Virus record (IMG/VR): IMGVR_UViG_3300033553_000165
Span: 32,897-96,896 of that record
Strand: one strand, 5' to 3'
DNA length: 64,000 nt
DNA from: a virus
Shown: positions 8,443-39,607 of the stretch, piece by piece
How the letters are laid out: each line of letters opens with the position of its first letter
How positions within the stretch are numbered: position 1 is the stretch's first letter
Position numbers and translations under genes: made by a program
The notes under the pieces: model-generated
Databases searched by the model: none
Told to the model about the DNA's origin: nothing
The model's input: only the letters and a program-made list of their open reading frames with translations

Positions 8443-10350
8443 TTAACTTTTTTTTAATATACTAATGCCATTTACTTTTTTTATTATCAATTCGTTATTT
8501 GCTCCGATGGGTGTATTTCTGTGGGAGACTACCAATGTAGTAACCCCGAGACCTTCCAATATTTTTATCAGATCTTTTTGGCCCGTAACATCCAGACCCT
8601 CAAATACTTCATCTAATCCTAAGAAATTCAAACCACCATTTGGAGCCGACATATTGAATAACTTCTGCATACCTACGATATTGGCTAAATTTATGCGCCC
8701 CTTCTCTCCTCCACTATACTTCTCATATACTCCTACGTTCTTACCGTTCCGGATAATTGAGACGTCTATTTTCTCCCTTACATCGCCACTCTTTAAAACG
8801 GTAAATCCATCTATGTTTACTTGGAGATCAGTATTGATTTTCTTAAGATAGCTGTTTGTGATACCTTCTATGGATTTTATACTCTTATTAGTTAAAAAAG
8901 TCATAAAACCCTTTTTTCCTAAATGGTGTATCCAAAACTCATTTTCATCTACTTTCATTTCCCACTCCAGCATTTCTTTCGTGTGAACTTTTAGCTTCGT
9001 GCGGGCATTACCAAACTCTTCCTTCAGCTTAACGATTTTTTCGTCCTTATTTGCCCCTTCTTTTAGTTTCTCTATAATCTCCTCGTTATTCTTTATAGAA
9101 CGCTTAAATCCTTCTATTTCATCCTCTAGTATAGTGTATGAGTTCTTAAGGCTTTTATGTTTACGCTTGGCGTCTAAATATTCTTGATCAGCTTCATCAG
9201 CCTTCTCAATTTCAACCTCAATATTTTTAATCCGCTTCTCCAACTTTTTAATCGAAACTCCATCAATCTCTATATTCTCCTTAAGAATCTTAATATTCTC
9301 ATTAGTGGCTTCCATTAGTTCCGGAACCTCTTCTAAACTTATATTGGCCGAAGGATTAAATCCAAACTTACATTCTGGACAATCTATTCTCCCCTTCTTG
9401 ATATTCTCCAAGTGGTTTATTAAATGCTCAGCTTCCGCTATATCATCTTGAGTTTTATTTCGCTCCTTTTTTATCTTAGCGATTTTCCCCTTCAACTTCT
9501 TAACCCTATCATATAATTCAGTGGTATCTTTAAGAGCATCCTTTTTAATTAGGATATCTCGCTCCGCAAGAATAACCTTTTCCTCCAATTCCATTCTCTT
9601 TTCACCGCCTTCTGAAATCTTTAATTTATACTTATCAATCTGGTTAGTGTAGCCGGAAATTTTAGTCTCAATCCTCTGTAAATAATTTTCCTTTTCATCC
9701 TTAATTTCACCCTCAATAAATTCCATTTTATTCTCCAATTTCGTAACCTTTTCCTTCAGATCATTTAGCTTTAAATTGTTACCCTTATTGGATGATTTAA
9801 GTTCCTCAATCTTATCACTTATAAATTGGGTGTTTGAAAATCTAGCAATAATATTTTTCTTTTCAGCGTCTCCAGCCGTCAAGAAAGAATAATGCGTATC
9901 TTGCCCTATAACGAAGAAGTGAATGAAGTCCTCACGAGTTAATCCGATAAGTTCTAAGATTCGGTTATTTGCCTCAATTACCGAAGTAACTTGCGTATTC
10001 TTCTCACCGTTCTCCCATAGCTCAATACGTGAAGATTTCTTCCTATCAAACCAGCGTCTAATACTTAGCGTCTTTATTTTGCATACTTGGTTAGTCAGAT
10101 CAAATTGGACATAGGTTTCATCAGCGTCGTCAGCTATGAAACTATCCTTATTTACGTCCCGATTTGTTGAACCTGTTATTGCCAACGTTATTCCTTCAAT
10201 CAGAGTAGACTTTCCGGAACCATTACTATCTGCTCCTGGGTCGGTTTCATTTTCTCCGTAAATCATCACGCATTGATTATTCTGGAATTCATATTCTGAA
10301 TCAGCGTGGGACATTAAGTCTTTAAGTATTATTTTGGTTGGTTGCCACAT
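8443..10350 (-). CDS. sbcC: SbcC/Rad50-like ATPase subunit (T4 gp46 type)
   Basis: 635 residues with the SMC-like layout. The N-terminal Walker A is SNGSGKSTL (44-49 core). Two long coiled-coil arms flank a zinc hook CPEC near residue 330. The C-terminal half holds the ABC signature YSGGEKGRINLA and Walker B FLGLDEVFEGLD. With the SbcD-like nuclease (10663-11703) it would form the complex that resects DNA ends for recombination, as gp46/gp47 do in T4. The start overlaps the previous stop by one base. Downstream, 75 AT-rich bases hold no gene. Confidence 0.92.
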   Translation of the reverse strand: MWQPTKIILKDLMSHADSEYEFQNNQCVMIYGENETDPGADSNGSGKSTLIEGITLAITGSTNRDVNKDSFIADDADETYVQFDLTNQVCKIKTLSIRRWFDRKKSSRIELWENGEKNTQVTSVIEANNRILELIGLTREDFIHFFVIGQDTHYSFLTAGDAEKKNIIARFSNTQFISDKIEELKSSNKGNNLKLNDLKEKVTKLENKMEFIEGEIKDEKENYLQRIETKISGYTNQIDKYKLKISEGGEKRMELEEKVILAERDILIKKDALKDTTELYDRVKKLKGKIAKIKKERNKTQDDIAEAEHLINHLENIKKGRIDCPECKFGFNPSANISLEEVPELMEATNENIKILKENIEIDGVSIKKLEKRIKNIEVEIEKADEADQEYLDAKRKHKSLKNSYTILEDEIEGFKRSIKNNEEIIEKLKEGANKDEKIVKLKEEFGNARTKLKVHTKEMLEWEMKVDENEFWIHHLGKKGFMTFLTNKSIKSIEGITNSYLKKINTDLQVNIDGFTVLKSGDVREKIDVSIIRNGKNVGVYEKYSGGEKGRINLANIVGMQKLFNMSAPNGGLNFLGLDEVFEGLDVTGQKDLIKILEGLGVTTLVVSHRNTPIGANNELIIKKVNGISILKKS

Positions 10351-10673
10351 TATCTTGTTGGGTTTACGATGAATCTGTATCTGGGTGAAAGGAACTTATT
10401 ACCTACTTTCTTTTCGATCATTTGTTGAGCCTTGTGTTCACCCTTCTTCTCAATTATTTTTTGTACGAAACGGATTGCGGATTTTTTACTTTTATGTAAA
10501 GCAGATACCTTCGTTCCGGATTTGGCTTCGCTAATACAAAGCCGATTATTAAATTTATGTAAGAATAATTCTAAGCTATCAAAACCATCTATCTGTATTG
10601 GGAGACCGCTAACCTTTTTGAAGGTATTTCCGTTCCGGACATAATAATTTTCGTTGACTAATCTAATCCACAT
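10350..10673 (-). CDS. Hypothetical protein between sbcD and sbcC, 107 residues
   Basis: Not recognised. Beta-rich N-terminal part (MWIRLVNENYYVRNGNTFKK), basic helical C-terminal part (KKSAIRFVQKIIEKKGEHKA), overall strongly basic, so nucleic-acid binding is plausible. It is inserted between the nuclease and ATPase genes of the Mre11/Rad50-like pair, overlapping the first by 11 bases and touching the second. This suggests coexpression and perhaps an accessory role in end processing. Confidence 0.6.
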   Translation of the reverse strand: MWIRLVNENYYVRNGNTFKKVSGLPIQIDGFDSLELFLHKFNNRLCISEAKSGTKVSALHKSKKSAIRFVQKIIEKKGEHKAQQMIEKKVGNKFLSPRYRFIVNPTR

Positions 10674-11703
10674 TTTGTTTAAGTATTTTAAGACCTCGTT
10701 TGCGGCTGATAGAATCTATACCTTGGATTTTACAATATTCGGCGAAATACTTTATTATAGCTTTTTGATCAAGTTCTTTTAGATCACCGCTCTCAATTTT
10801 AAGTATTTCTTCATTGATATCATTCAGCTCAAACTTACAGTCAATTCCTAAACTACTTAACTTTGCTTGATCTACCTTATGAATCTCAGATTTATCTCCA
10901 GAGAATATAAACCGTACATTATCTTCTTTTCCACCGTACATCTCAATCTCATTATCAACGTCGTCATTAACGTCCAACTTGATCTTTATGTATTTAGGGA
11001 AGTTTGTAGGCTCAAAATCTATATCTCCATTTTCCATTAGGATAGTAAATCCTTTGTCCTCTATATTTTCCCCATAATTACCTTGATAGGCTGAACCAAT
11101 ATAAAAGATATTTTTACCGATTTCACTCCCATCGTGATAATGCCCGACTAAGACCTTATCCCAGCTTTTTACGTCCTTCGGCGAAATAGCATCTTCAACT
11201 ACTGAACCGTCGTTATTTCGTACCCCATTAAAGGCGACGTGAGTTATTAAGATTGACTTCTCATACGGAACCTTTTCTCTCAGGGTTTCAAGCTCTTTTA
11301 ATCTCGCTTTATAACTATTGGAGAAGTATGGTAAAAATCCTACCGATATGTCCCCCATTTTTATACATCTAAAGTTTCTGACCAATTGGAAGTTTACCGT
11401 ATTATCAAATACATCTAAATAGCTATCCTCACTATCTAAATCCGTCTTATCGTGGTTACCAGGAATACCAACTAACGTTATTCCCGTTCCCTCAAATATA
11501 CCTAAGATTTTCTTCATAGTAATCAACGTCATCAGGTTTTGACCTATACGATTTGTGAAGAAGTCTCCACCGTGAATTACATAATCGACTCCTAATAAAT
11601 TAGCAAGGTCATATGCCTGCACAAAAATATTATAGACTAAATCTAAATTATCACGCTTTAAATGCGTATCGGTCAAAACTACTGCTAACGGCTTATTGAT
11701 CAT
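10663..11703 (-). CDS. sbcD: SbcD/Mre11-like nuclease subunit (T4 gp47 type)
   Basis: A calcineurin-like metallophosphoesterase of about 346 residues. The metal ligands follow the family order: DTH (12-14), GGDFF, PGNHDKTD, LITHVAFNG and VGHYHDG. It would be the exo/endonuclease partner of the SbcC-like ATPase. I prefer the ATG at 11703 (MINKPLAVVLTDTH), preceded by a purine-rich AAAGAGAAAG; an in-frame ATG at 11721 would add six residues. The start lies inside the recA-like gene's last codons. Confidence 0.92.
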   Translation of the reverse strand: MINKPLAVVLTDTHLKRDNLDLVYNIFVQAYDLANLLGVDYVIHGGDFFTNRIGQNLMTLITMKKILGIFEGTGITLVGIPGNHDKTDLDSEDSYLDVFDNTVNFQLVRNFRCIKMGDISVGFLPYFSNSYKARLKELETLREKVPYEKSILITHVAFNGVRNNDGSVVEDAISPKDVKSWDKVLVGHYHDGSEIGKNIFYIGSAYQGNYGENIEDKGFTILMENGDIDFEPTNFPKYIKIKLDVNDDVDNEIEMYGGKEDNVRFIFSGDKSEIHKVDQAKLSSLGIDCKFELNDINEEILKIESGDLKELDQKAIIKYFAEYCKIQGIDSISRKRGLKILKQNVD

Positions 11704-12778
11704 AACTTTCTCTTTCTTCAATTACTTGTTGATGTCTTTGCTTTGTAATCTTCTTATGGATAATCTCCATATATTTATTCTTGCTCCAGTACAGCTGATA
11801 GAGTGTCCGCTTACTACTCCAACTAACTTTGCCCTTCATAGCCGAGTGCTTTAGAGCTCCTTCTTTTTCAATAATCCCGTGCTCAACACCAAAGGTAATA
11901 TCTTCAGCGCTCAATACCATACCGAACCCCATTAGGATTTCAATATTTGTTTCTCGTCGGCTTCCGAAGTCATTCTTTTCAACCGAAACTTTTGTTATCT
12001 GAGCTACCTTAGCATCGTCAATCTTTTCACTCTTAATAGTGACCATCCTTAACCGTATTGTGGACATTAATTCAACCCACTCACCACCTGTCGATTTCTT
12101 ACCGTGACCTCCGATTTTATCATAAACGTGGTTCAACATTATGAAGTGTATGGTGGTGTTATACATTTCCCCTACTAAGAACTTGGCGAACATCTTAGCT
12201 GGTTTAGCAAAGGCTCCGATTTTTTCGTGCTTCAACTTTTCCATATCTTTCCCCTTCGTCATTGTCTTTTCCATAGCGGCAGTATTCTCCTGCATAGTAT
12301 CAAGCTCAGATCGAGATAGGGTTGCCCCTAAACTATCCCAAAGGAAATAAAATTTAGGCTCTCCCATCTTTTCCGCTCTGAAAATATCCTTAGCTTCTTC
12401 AATAAGGTTTTTGACTTGAAGAAACATCATCTCAACATAGCGGATTTTTATTATCATAACCTTTTCCAAATCAATACCGAGACGTGTAGCGTATTCACGA
12501 TTGTCCCTATTTTCTGAAGATAGGATAACCGCTATTCCATCAGGTTGAGCATTGAGGAAATTTCTCATACCTACTAATCCCAACGTTGTCTTTCCGGAAG
12601 CACTTGGCCCAGCTATTTCAACGATTCCTGTAGGTAATCCAAAAGTTCCTAAATTGTAATCTAATTCGGGGGATCCCGTATGCGCCCAACTACTAACTTC
12701 CTTGAAGCTATTTTTGTCGGAGAACTTGATAACGTCTCCGGAGTTGAACCGCTTTACCAGTTTGTCTATTATACTCAT
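11693..12778 (-). CDS. uvsX: RecA/UvsX-type recombinase
   Basis: 361 residues. Walker A is GPSASGKTT (57-65). The Walker B region is FYFLWDSLGAT, and loop segments around residues 170-235 include IHFIMLNHVYDKIG and KKSTGGEWVELMSTIRLR. This is the RecA core fold. It would catalyse strand invasion, initiating recombination-dependent replication with the SSB (12858-14123), the UvsW-like helicase and the SbcCD pair. A strong hairpin (12803-12836) separates it from the SSB gene, so it may be expressed at a lower level than SSB. Confidence 0.92.
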   Translation of the reverse strand: MSIIDKLVKRFNSGDVIKFSDKNSFKEVSSWAHTGSPELDYNLGTFGLPTGIVEIAGPSASGKTTLGLVGMRNFLNAQPDGIAVILSSENRDNREYATRLGIDLEKVMIIKIRYVEMMFLQVKNLIEEAKDIFRAEKMGEPKFYFLWDSLGATLSRSELDTMQENTAAMEKTMTKGKDMEKLKHEKIGAFAKPAKMFAKFLVGEMYNTTIHFIMLNHVYDKIGGHGKKSTGGEWVELMSTIRLRMVTIKSEKIDDAKVAQITKVSVEKNDFGSRRETNIEILMGFGMVLSAEDITFGVEHGIIEKEGALKHSAMKGKVSWSSKRTLYQLYWSKNKYMEIIHKKITKQRHQQVIEERESYDQ

Positions 12779-33245: not shown

Positions 33246-33580
33246 TATCTCTGGTAGATTAATTCGCCTTGATCATTTATAGAATAACTGCTGGCGTGTG
33301 CGTCGGAAATAACTAACTCCCCACCTATATCAACATTAATAATTAAGTCTCTATTTTTGCTTATCAATAATTCGCCCTCTAAGCCCATTGATGAATCAAT
33401 CTTTTTTCTTTCCTCTAGAAGTTCCACGTTAGTGATATTCATAGGGTTCAAAACCTCTTCATCGTTTTGATCCTCATTGTGAGCTAAGATTTTTAGGGAG
33501 ATTGATCCCGTGTTATCTTCTAAGCTTAAACTCAAATCAACCACTTCAGTTTTGGAGGATGAATATGTTTTCTTTTCCAT
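33245..33580 (-). CDS. Small baseplate-cluster protein, 111 residues
   Basis: Not recognised. Predicted all beta, with ILAHNEDQNDEEVLNPMNIT and a repeated L-I-x-x-D strand pattern near the end (RDLIINVDIGGELVISD). It shares one base with both neighbours (TAATG junctions), so it is tightly coupled with the gpJ-like gene and the 559-residue gene and is probably a small baseplate component. Confidence 0.55.
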   Translation of the reverse strand: MEKKTYSSSKTEVVDLSLSLEDNTGSISLKILAHNEDQNDEEVLNPMNITNVELLEERKKIDSSMGLEGELLISKNRDLIINVDIGGELVISDAHASSYSINDQGELIYQR

Positions 33581-34776
33581 TATAGAGATTTTAATACGGT
33601 TGCTTGATAACTAAAATCCAAGTCATTTGGATAGTAAACAGGGTTCAATGTTTCCGTCTGGTTGGAGATAAGTTCCCCTTTCATATTCATCATCATAAAC
33701 CCTCGGAACCTCGGAAGGTGTCCTCTCGGGATAATTAAGTCATTGTTAGGGAAGAAATAATTGTCTAACACACGATTTACTCCCCGAACACCTTTTATAG
33801 CGTTAATCAAGTCTATCCAGTCTATTATTCCTCCGTCGTCCCAAAGTCTGTAGTCAACGACCTTATTGATAGCAATTTGAATATGTTTCCGAACGTTATC
33901 CGGATTATAAGAAGAATCAATATCTACACGACAACTTATGTCAATTGGAAAGTAAGGAATATTGATAATCTTTATACCGTAATTATTTCTACCATCAGGT
34001 TTCAACTCATTCATCGAAAAGTAGTTTTCCCCTTTAGCTAATATCTCCGCAAGTTCACCGCTTGAAAATTGAGCTCCATTAACTGCCGAAACTCCAATTT
34101 GAAGGTCTCCCACTTGATCTAGACCTAAATTATAAACCCTCAAAACATTTGGATTTATTTTTCGGAAAACTTGTTCTAGATATGAAATTGTACCCCGAGC
34201 CAAAACGTTGATCTCGTCTTTTATTCTTTGTCTAAAATTATCGTCATCCTCAAAATCTCTTCCACCAGTTGCCGAAAATTCATTTATACTATATTCGTGT
34301 CCAGCTGGTCTAGGACTTAATTGACTTATTGTTAAAGTCTCAACGTTTGTACTTGAACCGCTGTTTAGGCTTTTCACTTTTACATACGTAAATCCTTCCT
34401 CTGGTATCTCAACGCTCAACTCTGGAGTAAAGTCAATCCCTTTACCTTTAAAGATATGAAGATTGGGAGTGTAAGTCGTACCAGGAGCACCGACCACCCT
34501 TATATATGCTACACTTTGAGTTGCGCCTAATCTTCCTGCCACCCCTTGAAGTTCCGCTATCCTATCTAAATAATCCCCGAAGGCTGAATCCGGAAATAAA
34601 TGGGCTTCAACTACGGCAGTATCTTTTAGAACCTTTTGGGCTAATTTTCCGATACCATAACCGATACCATTCAGAACCGAACCGTCTGAAATCTTCGTAA
34701 CCTTATTGGTATGGTTTAGGAATGTTTCGGCGAAAATCCTTTTTAGTTCCTCTACAGGTGTTATTTTTGTTATCAT
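33580..34776 (-). CDS. Baseplate J-like protein (P2 gpJ / T4 gp6 family)
   Basis: 398 residues. The N-terminus carries SVLNGIGYGIGKLAQKVLKD and LFPDSAFGDYLDRIAELQGV, the conserved start of the gpJ family, followed by RLGATQSVAYIRVVG and a glycine-rich strand region. Residues ~185-290 contain DEINVLARGTISYLEQVFRK and LDQVGDLQIGVSAVNG. It forms the baseplate wedge that connects hub and fibres and triggers sheath contraction. Confidence 0.85.
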   Translation of the reverse strand: MITKITPVEELKRIFAETFLNHTNKVTKISDGSVLNGIGYGIGKLAQKVLKDTAVVEAHLFPDSAFGDYLDRIAELQGVAGRLGATQSVAYIRVVGAPGTTYTPNLHIFKGKGIDFTPELSVEIPEEGFTYVKVKSLNSGSSTNVETLTISQLSPRPAGHEYSINEFSATGGRDFEDDDNFRQRIKDEINVLARGTISYLEQVFRKINPNVLRVYNLGLDQVGDLQIGVSAVNGAQFSSGELAEILAKGENYFSMNELKPDGRNNYGIKIINIPYFPIDISCRVDIDSSYNPDNVRKHIQIAINKVVDYRLWDDGGIIDWIDLINAIKGVRGVNRVLDNYFFPNNDLIIPRGHLPRFRGFMMMNMKGELISNQTETLNPVYYPNDLDFSYQATVLKSL

Positions 34777-34790
34777 CTCTAAATTTATTT

Positions 34791-35150
34791 TTATTCGTTA
34801 GCTCCCCATATTATAGCATAACCATTTTCCCATAACCAATAATTTAAATGCTCACCATCTATCCATATGTGAGCTATGTATCTATTGAAAGAACCTGTTT
34901 TATCCTTATCAGTTTGAAGTGTAAAAGTTTTACCTTTTAATTTTTCTTCAACTATTTGTTGAACCATCCGACCTTCCTCTAGAGTTGGTGTTCTACGTTC
35001 AGGTGTATCTATTACCGCTAATCTTAATGTGCGAGTAGTATAATCTCTAAATCCTTGATCTATTAAGGCAGTAAGAGTATCTCCGTCAAAATTTTTAATT
35101 GACGTTCCGACATATACATAACTTCTTTCGGGTTGTGGTAGCTTTATCAT
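34791..35150 (-). CDS. Staphylococcal-nuclease-like protein in the baseplate operon
   Basis: 119 residues covering one complete SNase (OB-fold) domain. Catalytic positions are all present: D22/D24 in FDGDT, R43 and D48/E51 in RLAVIDTPERR, and R90 in SFNRYIAHI. The family cuts DNA or RNA with calcium. There is no signal peptide or membrane segment. The gene overlaps the gp25-like gene by four bases and is 14 bases from the gpJ-like gene. That position suggests a late or virion-associated role, for example degrading nucleic acid at infection, rather than a replication role; this is inference. Confidence 0.8.
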   Translation of the reverse strand: MIKLPQPERSYVYVGTSIKNFDGDTLTALIDQGFRDYTTRTLRLAVIDTPERRTPTLEEGRMVQQIVEEKLKGKTFTLQTDKDKTGSFNRYIAHIWIDGEHLNYWLWENGYAIIWGANE

Positions 35151-36073
35151 AATGTTATATTTCTAATTATTACCAAATCAAATTTTGTGTTTACTCTGTA
35201 CTCAATAAATACGTCCCCTTCTTCGTGGCGAATATCTATTACCTCAAAATCTTTAAATAGATCATCTGATGAGAATATTCTTTTTAATTCCCTCGCTATA
35301 CTTTTAAAGTTTAGTTGAGAATAATTTTCACCCTTATATAGACTTCCATCAAGTCCAAGGTTTGGAAATTCTGGAATATCACCTTTCTTTAAAATTGATA
35401 AAGTGTCCACGGTTTGTTGTACGGTTTCTTTATATCCTAAAACTACAAGGTCTCCATCTTTCAATTCAATGAGTCGCTTTATATCTTTTCCATAGATTCT
35501 TTCGCCGACCGTATTATCAATCATACTCGTTACAAGATTTCTTTGGAACAACTGCTTTCTCAGTTTTAAGTTTTTACCGCCTTCAATGTCCCAATCGTTT
35601 TCTTTCAGGTCATTATCTAAGGCTTGATCAACCCATCTGTTCTCATAGGCTTCCTCTTCTATAAAATCTTTTGTTATTCCTTCTAAGGTTTCCTGATCAT
35701 TCATCGTATAATCAAAAACTACTCCGGAGCGAGAAATACCGTTAATTAAAGATGAGCGCAAATATTTTGAAATATTTTGGTAATATTGTAACTTTCCCCG
35801 AATATCTTCAACCTTATCTAGAAGTTCCCAGTAATCAACCGTATTCATAACCCCCTTTTTCTCATAGAAGAAATTGGTAATTATTAAGGAATTTTCCGCT
35901 AATTGATTCAGTTTCTTAACCTTTTGCTTGTCTATGAAATTTACGTATCCTCTGAAGAATAGTACGATATCGTTCACATCTTCTTTGAAAAATCTTTTAG
36001 ACTCAACTAAAAATTCCCCAAGTGGGTAATTAGTCAAATCTATAAAATTTTGTATTACTTTAGGCTTTATCAT
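35147..36073 (-). CDS. Baseplate wedge protein with gp25-like C-terminus
   Basis: 308 residues. The first ~210 residues are helical and unassigned (NFFYEKKGVMNTVDYWELLD). The last ~95 residues (VQQTVDTLSILKKGDIPEFP, LNFKSIARELKRIFSSDDL, DVFIEYRVNTKFDLVIIRN) resemble gp25/gpW lysozyme-like baseplate proteins, whose pattern is an N-terminal helix, a P/G turn and beta strands with conserved acidic residues. Its neighbours (SNase-like, tail protein 36070-36756) are baseplate genes. Confidence in the family is moderate. Confidence 0.6.
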   Translation of the reverse strand: MIKPKVIQNFIDLTNYPLGEFLVESKRFFKEDVNDIVLFFRGYVNFIDKQKVKKLNQLAENSLIITNFFYEKKGVMNTVDYWELLDKVEDIRGKLQYYQNISKYLRSSLINGISRSGVVFDYTMNDQETLEGITKDFIEEEAYENRWVDQALDNDLKENDWDIEGGKNLKLRKQLFQRNLVTSMIDNTVGERIYGKDIKRLIELKDGDLVVLGYKETVQQTVDTLSILKKGDIPEFPNLGLDGSLYKGENYSQLNFKSIARELKRIFSSDDLFKDFEVIDIRHEEGDVFIEYRVNTKFDLVIIRNITL

Positions 36074-37217: not shown

Positions 37218-38123
37218 TTAATCCGTATTCGTTAATTTGGAAAGGAATTTTTCAAAATCCTTTCTTACTAATCTAAACTCCGCATCATTAATCCTTGTAC
37301 CACTTGGCCCAAAAGCAGTCGGCACGGTCATCTTCGCCAAAGCGTCATCATACTTCTCCAATATCTCCTTTAGCATATTTCCTAGAACCAAAGGTTCATT
37401 ACCGTCTCCGAAATTAATCTTAGACGATTTATCTGCTCTTATTTCAATCTTCTCCTCAGAAACGCTTACTTTATTCTCATATTCATCTTCGTATGTATAT
37501 CTCTCCGTTTCATCTGGACTCAAGGAACTTTTTGCCTTTATAGTTCCGTCTAAATCCGTAACCAGATTCTCAATCTTACCTTGAGACGCATTAATAGTTC
37601 TTTGGGTAGAATGAGTAAGAATTTGACCATTTACCTTGAGCTGAAAAATAGCGTCTTTATTTTTATCAGTCAACTCAATATTCATAACCATCCGCTCCGT
37701 AACTCCGTTTCCGGAAATTGAGATGGTTCCCTTTTTAGCGTCTAAATCTACATCGACAATATTTCCGCTATCGGTTGCCGTTATTCTTTTACGGTTTTCT
37801 GAATGAGAGAAAAAATCTTTATCATATTTCAAGCACGCAACTACAACTACCTCATTATGTTTAGGAATATTTATCCAAACTACAGGTGAACCCATTTCTC
37901 CAGACTTTTTGGGAAATTTAACCCTCTGGAGAGATTCACGATCTATATGAACATTATAAAAATTACTATGTCCATATCCTCCGAAAATTGAAATTCTTCC
38001 CGTATTGTAAACGTCTTGCTTATATTCTTCAATATCTACATTCTCAGGAATTATTACAAATCCTATCCCTGCGGGCAAATTACCGCTTAATCCTCTAATC
38101 CCTATGAAATCTTTCTTATCCAT
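37218..38123 (-). CDS. Baseplate spike protein (gpV/gp5-like)
   Basis: 301 residues. The N-terminal ~120 residues fit an OB-fold hub domain (GRISIFGGYGHSNFYNVHID; MGSPVVWINIPKHNEVVVVA). A repetitive beta region follows. The C-terminal part has INFGDGNEPLVLGNMLKEIL and VPTAFGPSGTRINDAEFRL, the pattern seen at the ends of gpV/VgrG-like proteins. It should be the membrane-piercing tip of the tail tube. It lies beside the M15-peptidase hub gene, as expected for a cell-puncturing device. Confidence 0.75.
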   Translation of the reverse strand: MDKKDFIGIRGLSGNLPAGIGFVIIPENVDIEEYKQDVYNTGRISIFGGYGHSNFYNVHIDRESLQRVKFPKKSGEMGSPVVWINIPKHNEVVVVACLKYDKDFFSHSENRKRITATDSGNIVDVDLDAKKGTISISGNGVTERMVMNIELTDKNKDAIFQLKVNGQILTHSTQRTINASQGKIENLVTDLDGTIKAKSSLSPDETERYTYEDEYENKVSVSEEKIEIRADKSSKINFGDGNEPLVLGNMLKEILEKYDDALAKMTVPTAFGPSGTRINDAEFRLVRKDFEKFLSKLTNTD

Positions 38124-39607
38124 TATTCTTTTGCGAATTGTTTACGGTTAATAAAAAATTGAAATACCTTATCATTCACTTTCCAATTTATATCTTCTGC
38201 ATTGTCTACATTCTCATCAAATAGAATCAAATTGAAATATCCTATGGAATCTTTATTTTTAGGAGCCGCAGTAAATTCTATTTTCATTCCCCTGCTAACT
38301 TGGATAATGGTTATAAATTCCGCTCCCCCGTCATTAGCGCTATATCTAGTTGAAACCGAATCTACATAAAATTCTTCTCCAGTTGGATGATAGAATATTT
38401 TATACCCTCTTTTGATTCTTGTAGTTCCTCGGACGGTTATGGTTCCTTGTCTGGTGAAGGGAAGGTACATATTACTTTCAACCATATATCTTAAATCTTC
38501 CTTCGCTTTTTTGTACATACTACTTTGACCTTTTACCTTGGTAAAATTCACATAGTTGCTAACTTGTATATTTGGTTTACTTCCCCATATTTCCGCATAC
38601 TCCTCAAAGAATACCGCTGTGATATATGCGAAGATTAAATTTTGTTCCCCTAGAAAGGAACCTCTGGGGATAATTTGATACCAAGAAAACACCTCACCAT
38701 CATACCAAGCTAAATCGTCAGTTAAGACCTCCTCTTCATAGATAGACGTCATAAGGGGCAATTCCGTCCATCCGTTATAATCGAATGGCTCTTTCCTGGA
38801 AAAGAAGTAATATTGATCTCCTATCGTATCTCCGTAAAATTGTAACCAAGGAGCCTGAACAACTTGATTAACAAAATTTATTAAGCTACCTTGAGAAGTC
38901 GCAATTCCCGCATCGTTTACACTTTGGCTCAGGGAGTACTGATCTGCTACCATCTTTATTATTTGCCAAATTCCTACCGCATTTTGGTTTTCGATCTTTG
39001 TGATCATTCTCCGGATAGGTTTTTCTTTCTTTTCGGTTTCGGTTTGTGTCTCTTTGATTAGGTTTCCCCCAACTTTCGTTTCCCATTCTCCTAGAACTTT
39101 TAATACAGTTTCTTTTACGCTTTTTTTATCTACCTCATCAAGTAGTACATATCCATTCTCATCTACAAGTCCTTTATTATGGGCTTTTAATAAGTCAATG
39201 GTTTTTATATTATTGTAATCAAAATGGTGTATCTCGCCTTTCATCGTAGAACCTAACCATCTCAACTTATACTTATTTGCGATTGGTTGAATTTTACGGT
39301 AAAGAGATCTGTCTTTTACAAATTCTTCTTTAACAAAATCATAAACATAAATATCAATAGCTAAACCATAATTGTGGTAACTACTTCCTGGCTTGGCAGC
39401 CACTATTTTAGATTCTTTTGAAAGGTATTTTCGATAGAGTGAAGCTTGTTCGGCAACCGTTCTGTAGGCTGAAAATATCCAAACAGGTGTTCCCGATTGT
39501 TCGCAATCAAATACGAAATTACTAAATCGTTCACGCTCATCTGGATGAAGACTTTTAATCTCTTCAGCGTTATTCGCAGCAGCGTTTGCTAAATTTCTGG
39601 TTCGCAT
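38123..39607 (-). CDS. Baseplate protein with N-terminal M15 peptidoglycan peptidase
   Basis: 494 residues. Residues ~1-135 carry the M15 (VanY/L-alanyl-D-glutamate peptidase) zinc signature: SYHNYGLAIDIY (H78, D85), RWLGS (W117) and GEIHHFDY (H127/H128). Such domains cut peptidoglycan cross-bridges. The remaining 350 residues are a beta-rich structural part (GTITVRGTTRIKRGYKIFYH, SVSTRYSANDGGAEFITI) resembling tail hub domains. A virion-borne wall hydrolase fused to a hub component is comparable to T4 gp5, but with a peptidase instead of a lysozyme. Confidence 0.75.
   Translation of the reverse strand: MRTRNLANAAANNAEEIKSLHPDERERFSNFVFDCEQSGTPVWIFSAYRTVAEQASLYRKYLSKESKIVAAKPGSSYHNYGLAIDIYVYDFVKEEFVKDRSLYRKIQPIANKYKLRWLGSTMKGEIHHFDYNNIKTIDLLKAHNKGLVDENGYVLLDEVDKKSVKETVLKVLGEWETKVGGNLIKETQTETEKKEKPIRRMITKIENQNAVGIWQIIKMVADQYSLSQSVNDAGIATSQGSLINFVNQVVQAPWLQFYGDTIGDQYYFFSRKEPFDYNGWTELPLMTSIYEEEVLTDDLAWYDGEVFSWYQIIPRGSFLGEQNLIFAYITAVFFEEYAEIWGSKPNIQVSNYVNFTKVKGQSSMYKKAKEDLRYMVESNMYLPFTRQGTITVRGTTRIKRGYKIFYHPTGEEFYVDSVSTRYSANDGGAEFITIIQVSRGMKIEFTAAPKNKDSIGYFNLILFDENVDNAEDINWKVNDKVFQFFINRKQFAKE

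What the first reader, a model, noticed from the sequence alone, without database searches (positions are those of the whole stretch)
34791..35150. Complete staphylococcal-nuclease-like enzyme within the baseplate genes
Seen: all catalytic positions of the SNase fold (D22, D24, R43, D48, E51, R90) in a free-standing 119-residue protein, translationally coupled to a gp25-like wedge gene. Known: the family degrades DNA and RNA in a calcium-dependent way. Inference: it might be carried in the tail and act on entry, or be a late host-DNA nuclease.
Basis: partly seen in the sequence, partly recalled or inferred. Interest (0 to 1): 0.5.

Follow-up and report, generated by a model that had tools for sequence, protein, structure and literature searches.

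The report
Nuclease gene inserted among baseplate genes
A virus of bacteria carries a small, apparently intact DNA/RNA-cutting enzyme gene that was slipped in between two tail-baseplate genes; nearly all relatives examined lack it, so its place among tail genes probably reflects gene shuffling rather than a tail part.

Summary
Window 34791-35150, minus strand, encodes a 119-residue member of the staphylococcal nuclease family (structural match Z 14.9) with every catalytic position intact, overlapping the upstream baseplate gene by 4 nt. The baseplate-component reading is not supported. Of 39 other records with the same downstream baseplate-J gene, only one (sister contig L002) has the nuclease; in 37 of the other 38 the flanking genes overlap, abut or lie at most 33 nt apart. 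The J tree needs one gain. Between window and L002 the nuclease is 91.5% identical (dN 0.05, dS 1.0); nine flanking genes are 50-76% identical with dS above 2 or saturated. The window copy has the lowest third-position GC of 63 minus-strand ORFs. None of seven relatives opened in phage records lies in a baseplate operon. Best reading: an active, recently gained or exchanged accessory nuclease, read with late tail genes, probably acting on host nucleic acid late in infection or at lysis (inferred). Virion carriage is neither shown nor excluded; a precedent exists (SNase-related domain on the BtI1 hub, PMC2147016). Ordinary family, mildly interesting setting.

The parts
34791..35150 (-). SNase-family nuclease gene, 119 aa, complete catalytic set
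35147..36073 (-). upstream baseplate gene (weakly phrog_975-like); its stop overlaps the nuclease start by 4 nt (ATGA)
33580..34776 (-). downstream Baseplate_J-like wedge gene; in 38 other records it follows the 35147-36073 homologue without a nuclease between
34777..34790 (-). 14-nt spacer between nuclease stop and J start; no terminator-like site and no excess of promoter-like sites in 34700-35250

Best explanation
The gene is an accessory (moron-type) nuclease of the staphylococcal nuclease family. SHOWN: the fold signature and catalytic residues are intact; the protein is under strong purifying selection; among the records examined it is present only in the window phage and its sister contig; it sits exactly at the junction of two otherwise neighbouring baseplate genes; it has younger synonymous divergence than its neighbours, and the window copy has aberrant third-position GC. 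INFERRED: the gene was gained once in this small clade and exchanged since, or entered it recently; with no promoter of its own in sight it is read with the late tail operon by ATGA coupling; the soluble enzyme has no export signal that I can see, so it accumulates in the infected cell and cuts host DNA/RNA late in infection or when the cell opens and calcium rises to the level that enzymes of this family need (calcium need recalled, not tested). Its place among baseplate genes is read as a tolerated insertion site, not as a sign of a baseplate part.
For: Family and catalytic set. Absent in 38 of 39 other J-bearing records, with the flanking genes neighbours. Window and L002 are sisters (100/99) on a tree of 31 of the 40 J proteins, one gain. 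Nuclease identical at 107 of 117 residues versus 50.0-76.1% for nine flanking genes. dN 0.051, dS 1.04 versus dN 0.17-0.47 and dS 2.3-3.8 (four genes) or saturated (five). Same-amino-acid codons identical in 69 of 107 versus 53.5 expected from the flanks (24 of 20,000 resamplings as high). GC3 0.183, lowest of all 63 minus-strand ORFs of at least 100 aa, below 431 of 431 overlapping and 132 of 132 non-overlapping 120-codon windows of the others (mean 0.341); first run on 56 of these 63. Seven homologues in other phage records lie beside terminase, SSB/replication genes, gyrase, metabolic genes, a large uncharacterised gene and tRNA/small genes. For cyanophage cluster T4-GC228, the label on S-ShM2's PF00565 gene, a figure legend in Sullivan et al. 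2010 (PMC3037559, passages) already suggests a part in genetic shuffling. No excess of promoter-like sites, no terminator.
Against: Only two carriers are known, so 'mobile' rests on one gain plus rate and composition contrasts. The two carriers are sisters with the same insertion point, so plain vertical descent after one insertion is possible; only the synonymous rate argues for later exchange, on 117 codons against saturated neighbours. Fourfold sites alone differ little (19 of 40 against 217 of 579 summed over the nine flanks). L002's copy has ordinary GC3 (0.30). Many of the 39 records are fragments, and three pairs (L029/L030, L032/L050, L033/L034) give identical scores and look like near-copies. 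Some homologues do lie among virion genes (gp13-gp19 region; a gene annotated 'major tail protein' nearby; 9 of 125 neighbour ORFs match tail tube). The BtI1 hub precedent (PMC2147016) shows that SNase domains can sit on a tail hub. Timing and substrate are inferred.
Confidence: 0.6

Rival explanations
1. Virion-borne nuclease: the protein rides on the baseplate and cuts extracellular DNA around the cell, or host DNA after injection, using external calcium.
For: Encoded inside the baseplate operon with 4-nt coupling to the upstream gene; more conserved than its neighbours; an SNase-related N-terminal domain was reported on the BtI1 baseplate hub protein, with no explanation by its authors (PMC2147016, passages); several viral homologues neighbour tail tube genes (9 of 125 neighbour ORFs); non-structural enzymes, among them a protein called a CRISPR-Cas9 nuclease, were found in S-CREM2 particles (PMC10665884, passages).
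Against: Not conserved with the baseplate: 38 of 39 other records lack it. No domain beyond the catalytic core. None of the 80 viral SNase loci had a homologue of either flanking baseplate gene in the stretch held, at most 5 kb each side.
Confidence: 0.2
2. Selfish free-standing endonuclease: the enzyme cuts phage DNA lacking the insert and so spreads itself, in the manner of intronless homing.
For: Occupied and empty sites exist at one precise junction; younger divergence of the gene than of its surroundings; the cyanophage cluster T4-GC228 was suggested to drive local shuffling, and the main text of that paper even links that cluster number to a known homing enzyme, opposite to its figure legend (PMC3037559, passages).
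Against: No homing-endonuclease family matched, only SNase and nuclease/unknown PHROGs. The raised identity stops near the gene edges, with no clear co-converted flank. SNases are sequence-unspecific as far as I recall. One gain suffices on the tree.
Confidence: 0.12
3. Counter-defence or RNA/nucleotide-directed enzyme: the nuclease destroys a defence nucleic acid or signal rather than bulk host DNA.
For: Sporadic, recently gained single genes of phages often serve host conflict (general knowledge); selection is strong.
Against: Nothing specific points to it; no defence-library search was made.
Confidence: 0.05

Closest known systems
Staphylococcal nuclease (thermonuclease), PF00565
   Same: Fold, catalytic positions, catalytic core
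   Different: No export signal by eye; in most listed alignments model residues 9-117 match S. nuclease 6-114, so the C-terminal part of S. nuclease appears to be missing
phrog_452 phage endonucleases / cyanophage cluster T4-GC228
   Same: phrog_452 is the best family match (1.4e-25); stand-alone small SNase genes of tailed phages, listed relatives 29-43% identical
   Different: In S-ShM2 the gene lies between gp16 and gp17, not at a baseplate junction
BtI1 hub protein with N-terminal SNase-related domain (Hardies et al. 2007, PMC2147016, passages read)
   Same: SNase-related domain in a baseplate setting
   Different: There it is fused to the hub protein; here it is a separate gene. The sequences were not compared here
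Free-standing (intronless) homing endonucleases of T4-like phages (recalled; mentioned in PMC3037559)
   Same: Single nuclease gene inserted between conserved genes with empty sites in relatives
   Different: Different nuclease family, no clear co-conversion trace

Membership tests
SNase family (PF00565) | Profile score above the curated cut-off | tested here: met
   28.3 bits against 21
SNase family (PF00565) | Metal-binding and catalytic residues (D, D, R, D, T, E, R; positions recalled for S. nuclease) | tested here: met
   All present; 43-45 of 45 aligned rows agree at each
SNase family (PF00565) | OB-fold of S. nuclease | tested here: met
   Model Z 14.9, rmsd 2.4, 105 aligned to 1snd_A
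SNase family (PF00565) | Calcium-dependent DNase/RNase activity | not testable with these tools
   Needs a bench assay
Baseplate structural component | Conserved place with baseplate genes across relatives | tested here: not met
   Present in 1 of 39 other J-bearing records
Baseplate structural component | Present in purified particles | not testable with these tools
   No proteomics; no cultured carrier found
Free-standing homing endonuclease | Member of a homing nuclease family | tested here: not met
   Pfam matched SNase only; PHROGs matched endonuclease, nuclease and one unknown family
Free-standing homing endonuclease | Occupied and empty alleles at the same site | tested here: met
   2 occupied (window, L002), 38 empty records
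Free-standing homing endonuclease | Co-converted flanks | tested here: not met
   60-nt window identity 0.80-0.92 inside the gene, falling to the flank range at its edges
Free-standing homing endonuclease | Site-specific cleavage of the empty allele | not testable with these tools
   Bench assay
Moron (accessory insertion) | Sporadic presence between conserved genes | tested here: met
Moron (accessory insertion) | Aberrant composition | tested here: met
   GC3 0.183, lowest of 63 ORFs; not so in L002 (0.30)
Moron (accessory insertion) | Own promoter and terminator | tested here: inconclusive
   2 promoter-like sites against 2.0 expected, 0 terminators; no Bacteroidota-type promoter pattern (recalled) by script; the host's promoters are unknown

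The most novel reading that the evidence does not exclude
A stand-alone SNase is assembled onto the baseplate of this phage, where external calcium switches it on, so that the particle can cut through DNA-rich slime around its host before injection; the tail would then carry a DNA-cutting tool as other tails carry sugar-cutting ones.
Probability: 0.1. Interest if true: 0.6.

Novelty: new member of a known kind. Interest (0 to 1): 0.25.

Why it matters
It shows that a gene's place inside a structural operon can mislead: an enzyme with intact catalytic residues and translational coupling to a baseplate gene is nonetheless most likely a late insert. It also gives occupied and empty sites in closely related phages in which the spread of SNase genes through phages (terminase region in a cyanophage, here the baseplate) can be tested.

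Tried and rejected
Conserved tail component: not supported by synteny. Decayed passenger gene: rejected, dN/dS about 0.05 and catalytic residues kept. Target-site repeat: the nuclease and J both begin ATGATAA, but 5 of 56 window ORFs do, so it was not used as evidence. L048 has a 431-nt gap at the junction; no SNase match in it. A family search with PF00565 over the 39 records found nothing, but it also missed the known copy in L002, so it was discarded and replaced by the profile search, which finds L002's copy and nothing else. Direct search for the nuclease in viral contigs gave only L002 and the distant L003. Cellular or prophage relatives: two scans of genome contigs found none, but they used two and one short peptide patterns, so this is weak. 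Plasmids: 42 records match, the 15 listed at 30-35% identity. A DNA pattern search found L002's contig and an unrelated chance hit, L132. A scan with the upstream gene returned 9 contigs, all already seen. Neighbour survey: 157 neighbour ORFs of the 80 viral SNase loci, of which I passed 125 to PHROGs, leaving out 32 (mostly opposite-strand or repeated ones, chosen by hand); 165 families matched, 25 shown; most frequent tail tube 9, ATPase 7, terminase 4, endolysin 4, DNA end protector 3 of 125. The J tree used 31 of 40 J proteins; nine (L005, L030, L033, L039, L042, L044, L045, L046, L050) were left out as near-copies, fragments or, L005, a fusion. Literature searches showed no paper on a stand-alone SNase gene in a baseplate operon among the listed titles and abstract openings (long lists were cut at 12-20 rows); only PMC2147016, PMC3037559 and PMC10665884 were opened, by passages.

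Full report
What is there. The window is part of a 96,896-base uncultivated virus record of a phage with a contractile tail (tail sheath phrog_279). Its baseplate-J protein is most like those of Chryseobacterium phage MA9V-3 (42%) and Bacteroides phages (36%) among records with a named host, which points to a host in the Bacteroidota (inferred). The reported gene lies on the minus strand at 34791-35150 and encodes 119 residues. Pfam, PHROGs, PDB sequence search and the predicted structure agree on the staphylococcal nuclease family. The model matches S. nuclease from residue 9 on and has no extra domain. The N-terminus shows no signal-like stretch by eye, unlike the relative in L003, which begins with a hydrophobic one.

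Its setting. The gene sits between a baseplate gene (35147-36073, weakly phrog_975-like) and a Baseplate_J gene (33580-34776). The upstream stop and the nuclease start overlap as ATGA; 14 nt separate the nuclease from J. No terminator and no excess of promoter-like sites was found, so it is probably read with the operon.

Synteny. A profile of the J protein found 35 IMG/VR contigs, L002's among them; four GenBank phage records were added, 39 in all. In 38 of the 39 the upstream gene and J are neighbours without the nuclease: in 20 they overlap by 4 nt, in 17 they overlap by 1 nt or lie 0-33 nt apart (for L031 and L041 I took the start of the tblastn match, not the longest frame), and in one, L048, a 431-nt gap holds no SNase match. 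A profile search of the whole records found the nuclease only in L002's contig, 1 of 39. Many records are fragments, so absence from the complete genomes is not proven, and three pairs look like near-copies. On a tree of 31 of the 40 J proteins the two carriers are sisters (100/99) and one gain suffices.

Age and selection. Window against L002, the nuclease is identical at 107 of 117 residues; the nine flanking genes lie between 50.0% and 76.1%. NG86 gives dN 0.051 and dS 1.04 for the nuclease; flanking genes have dN 0.17-0.47, with dS 2.3-3.8 in four (499-, 152-, 228- and 111-aa genes) and saturated in five; the second method, YN00, failed on every gene. Codons for shared amino acids agree in 69 of 107 against 53.5 expected from flanking genes, reached in 24 of 20,000 resamplings; fourfold sites alone (19 of 40 against 217 of 579) differ little. 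The rise in identity begins and ends about with the gene. The window copy has GC3 0.183, the lowest of the 63 minus-strand ORFs of at least 100 aa and below 431 of 431 overlapping and 132 of 132 non-overlapping 120-codon windows (one search had used 56 of the 63 with the same outcome); L002's copy is ordinary (0.30). Together these favour a functional gene that reached the two lineages, or was exchanged between them, later than the split of the surrounding genes; vertical descent from one insertion is not excluded.

Elsewhere. 569 phage records have a tblastn match, all under 60% identity. The seven neighbourhoods opened lie beside gyrase and an HNH gene, metabolic genes, terminase genes, SSB, a large uncharacterised gene and tRNA/small genes. 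None is a baseplate operon, but head and tail genes (gp13-gp19) surround the gene and a gene annotated 'major tail protein' is near. In the 80 viral SNase loci no homologue of either flanking baseplate gene was seen in the stretch held. Some neighbours are virion genes all the same (tail tube 9 of 125 neighbour ORFs).

Literature. Passages of Sullivan et al. 2010 (PMC3037559): a figure legend treats cluster T4-GC228, the cluster named on the S-ShM2 PF00565 gene, as possible endonucleases that may shuffle genes locally; the main text uses the two cluster numbers in the opposite sense. Passages of Hardies et al. [quoted passage not shown] Passages on S-CREM2 virion proteomics (PMC10665884) name a CRISPR-Cas9 nuclease among particle proteins and no SNase.

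Verdict. A genuine, very probably active nuclease gene; more likely an accessory insert than a baseplate part. The likeliest role is a late or lysis-stage nuclease (inferred). The virion reading is kept as a rival at about one in five because of the BtI1 precedent, the virion-gene neighbours of some homologues, and the lack of any particle data.

Noticed in passing
window 38123-39607 (-); L002 3009-5063; L008 1001-2983: Protein with an N-terminal VanY peptidase domain in the baseplate operon, a likely tail-borne cell-wall enzyme; the L002 and L008 versions are longer (684 and 660 aa) and carry an extra stretch that looks OmpA-like by eye, absent from the window version (494 aa).
   Followed up: no
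L005 9001-17091: In the faecal phage scaffold MT835500 the Baseplate_J domain opens a single 2,696-aa frame with many repeated stretches downstream.
   Followed up: no
L048 1901-2331: 431-nt gap at the same junction with no SNase match and, by eye, a hairpin-plus-T stretch; another break of the otherwise tight gene pair.
   Followed up: partly
L002 8355-8415: 61-nt spacer between nuclease stop and J start, longer than the 14 nt in the window; may be a remnant of a larger insert.
   Followed up: no
L003 2716-3096: A viral-contig SNase with an N-terminal hydrophobic stretch like an export signal, near a terminase-like frame on the opposite strand (both by eye).
   Followed up: no
L051-L130: SNase genes in viral contigs are sometimes next to virion genes (tail tube 9, terminase 4, DNA end protector 3 of 125 neighbour ORFs); why is unexplained.
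   Followed up: partly
window 8443-11721 (-): SbcC/SbcD-like nuclease pair, an ordinary feature.
   Followed up: no
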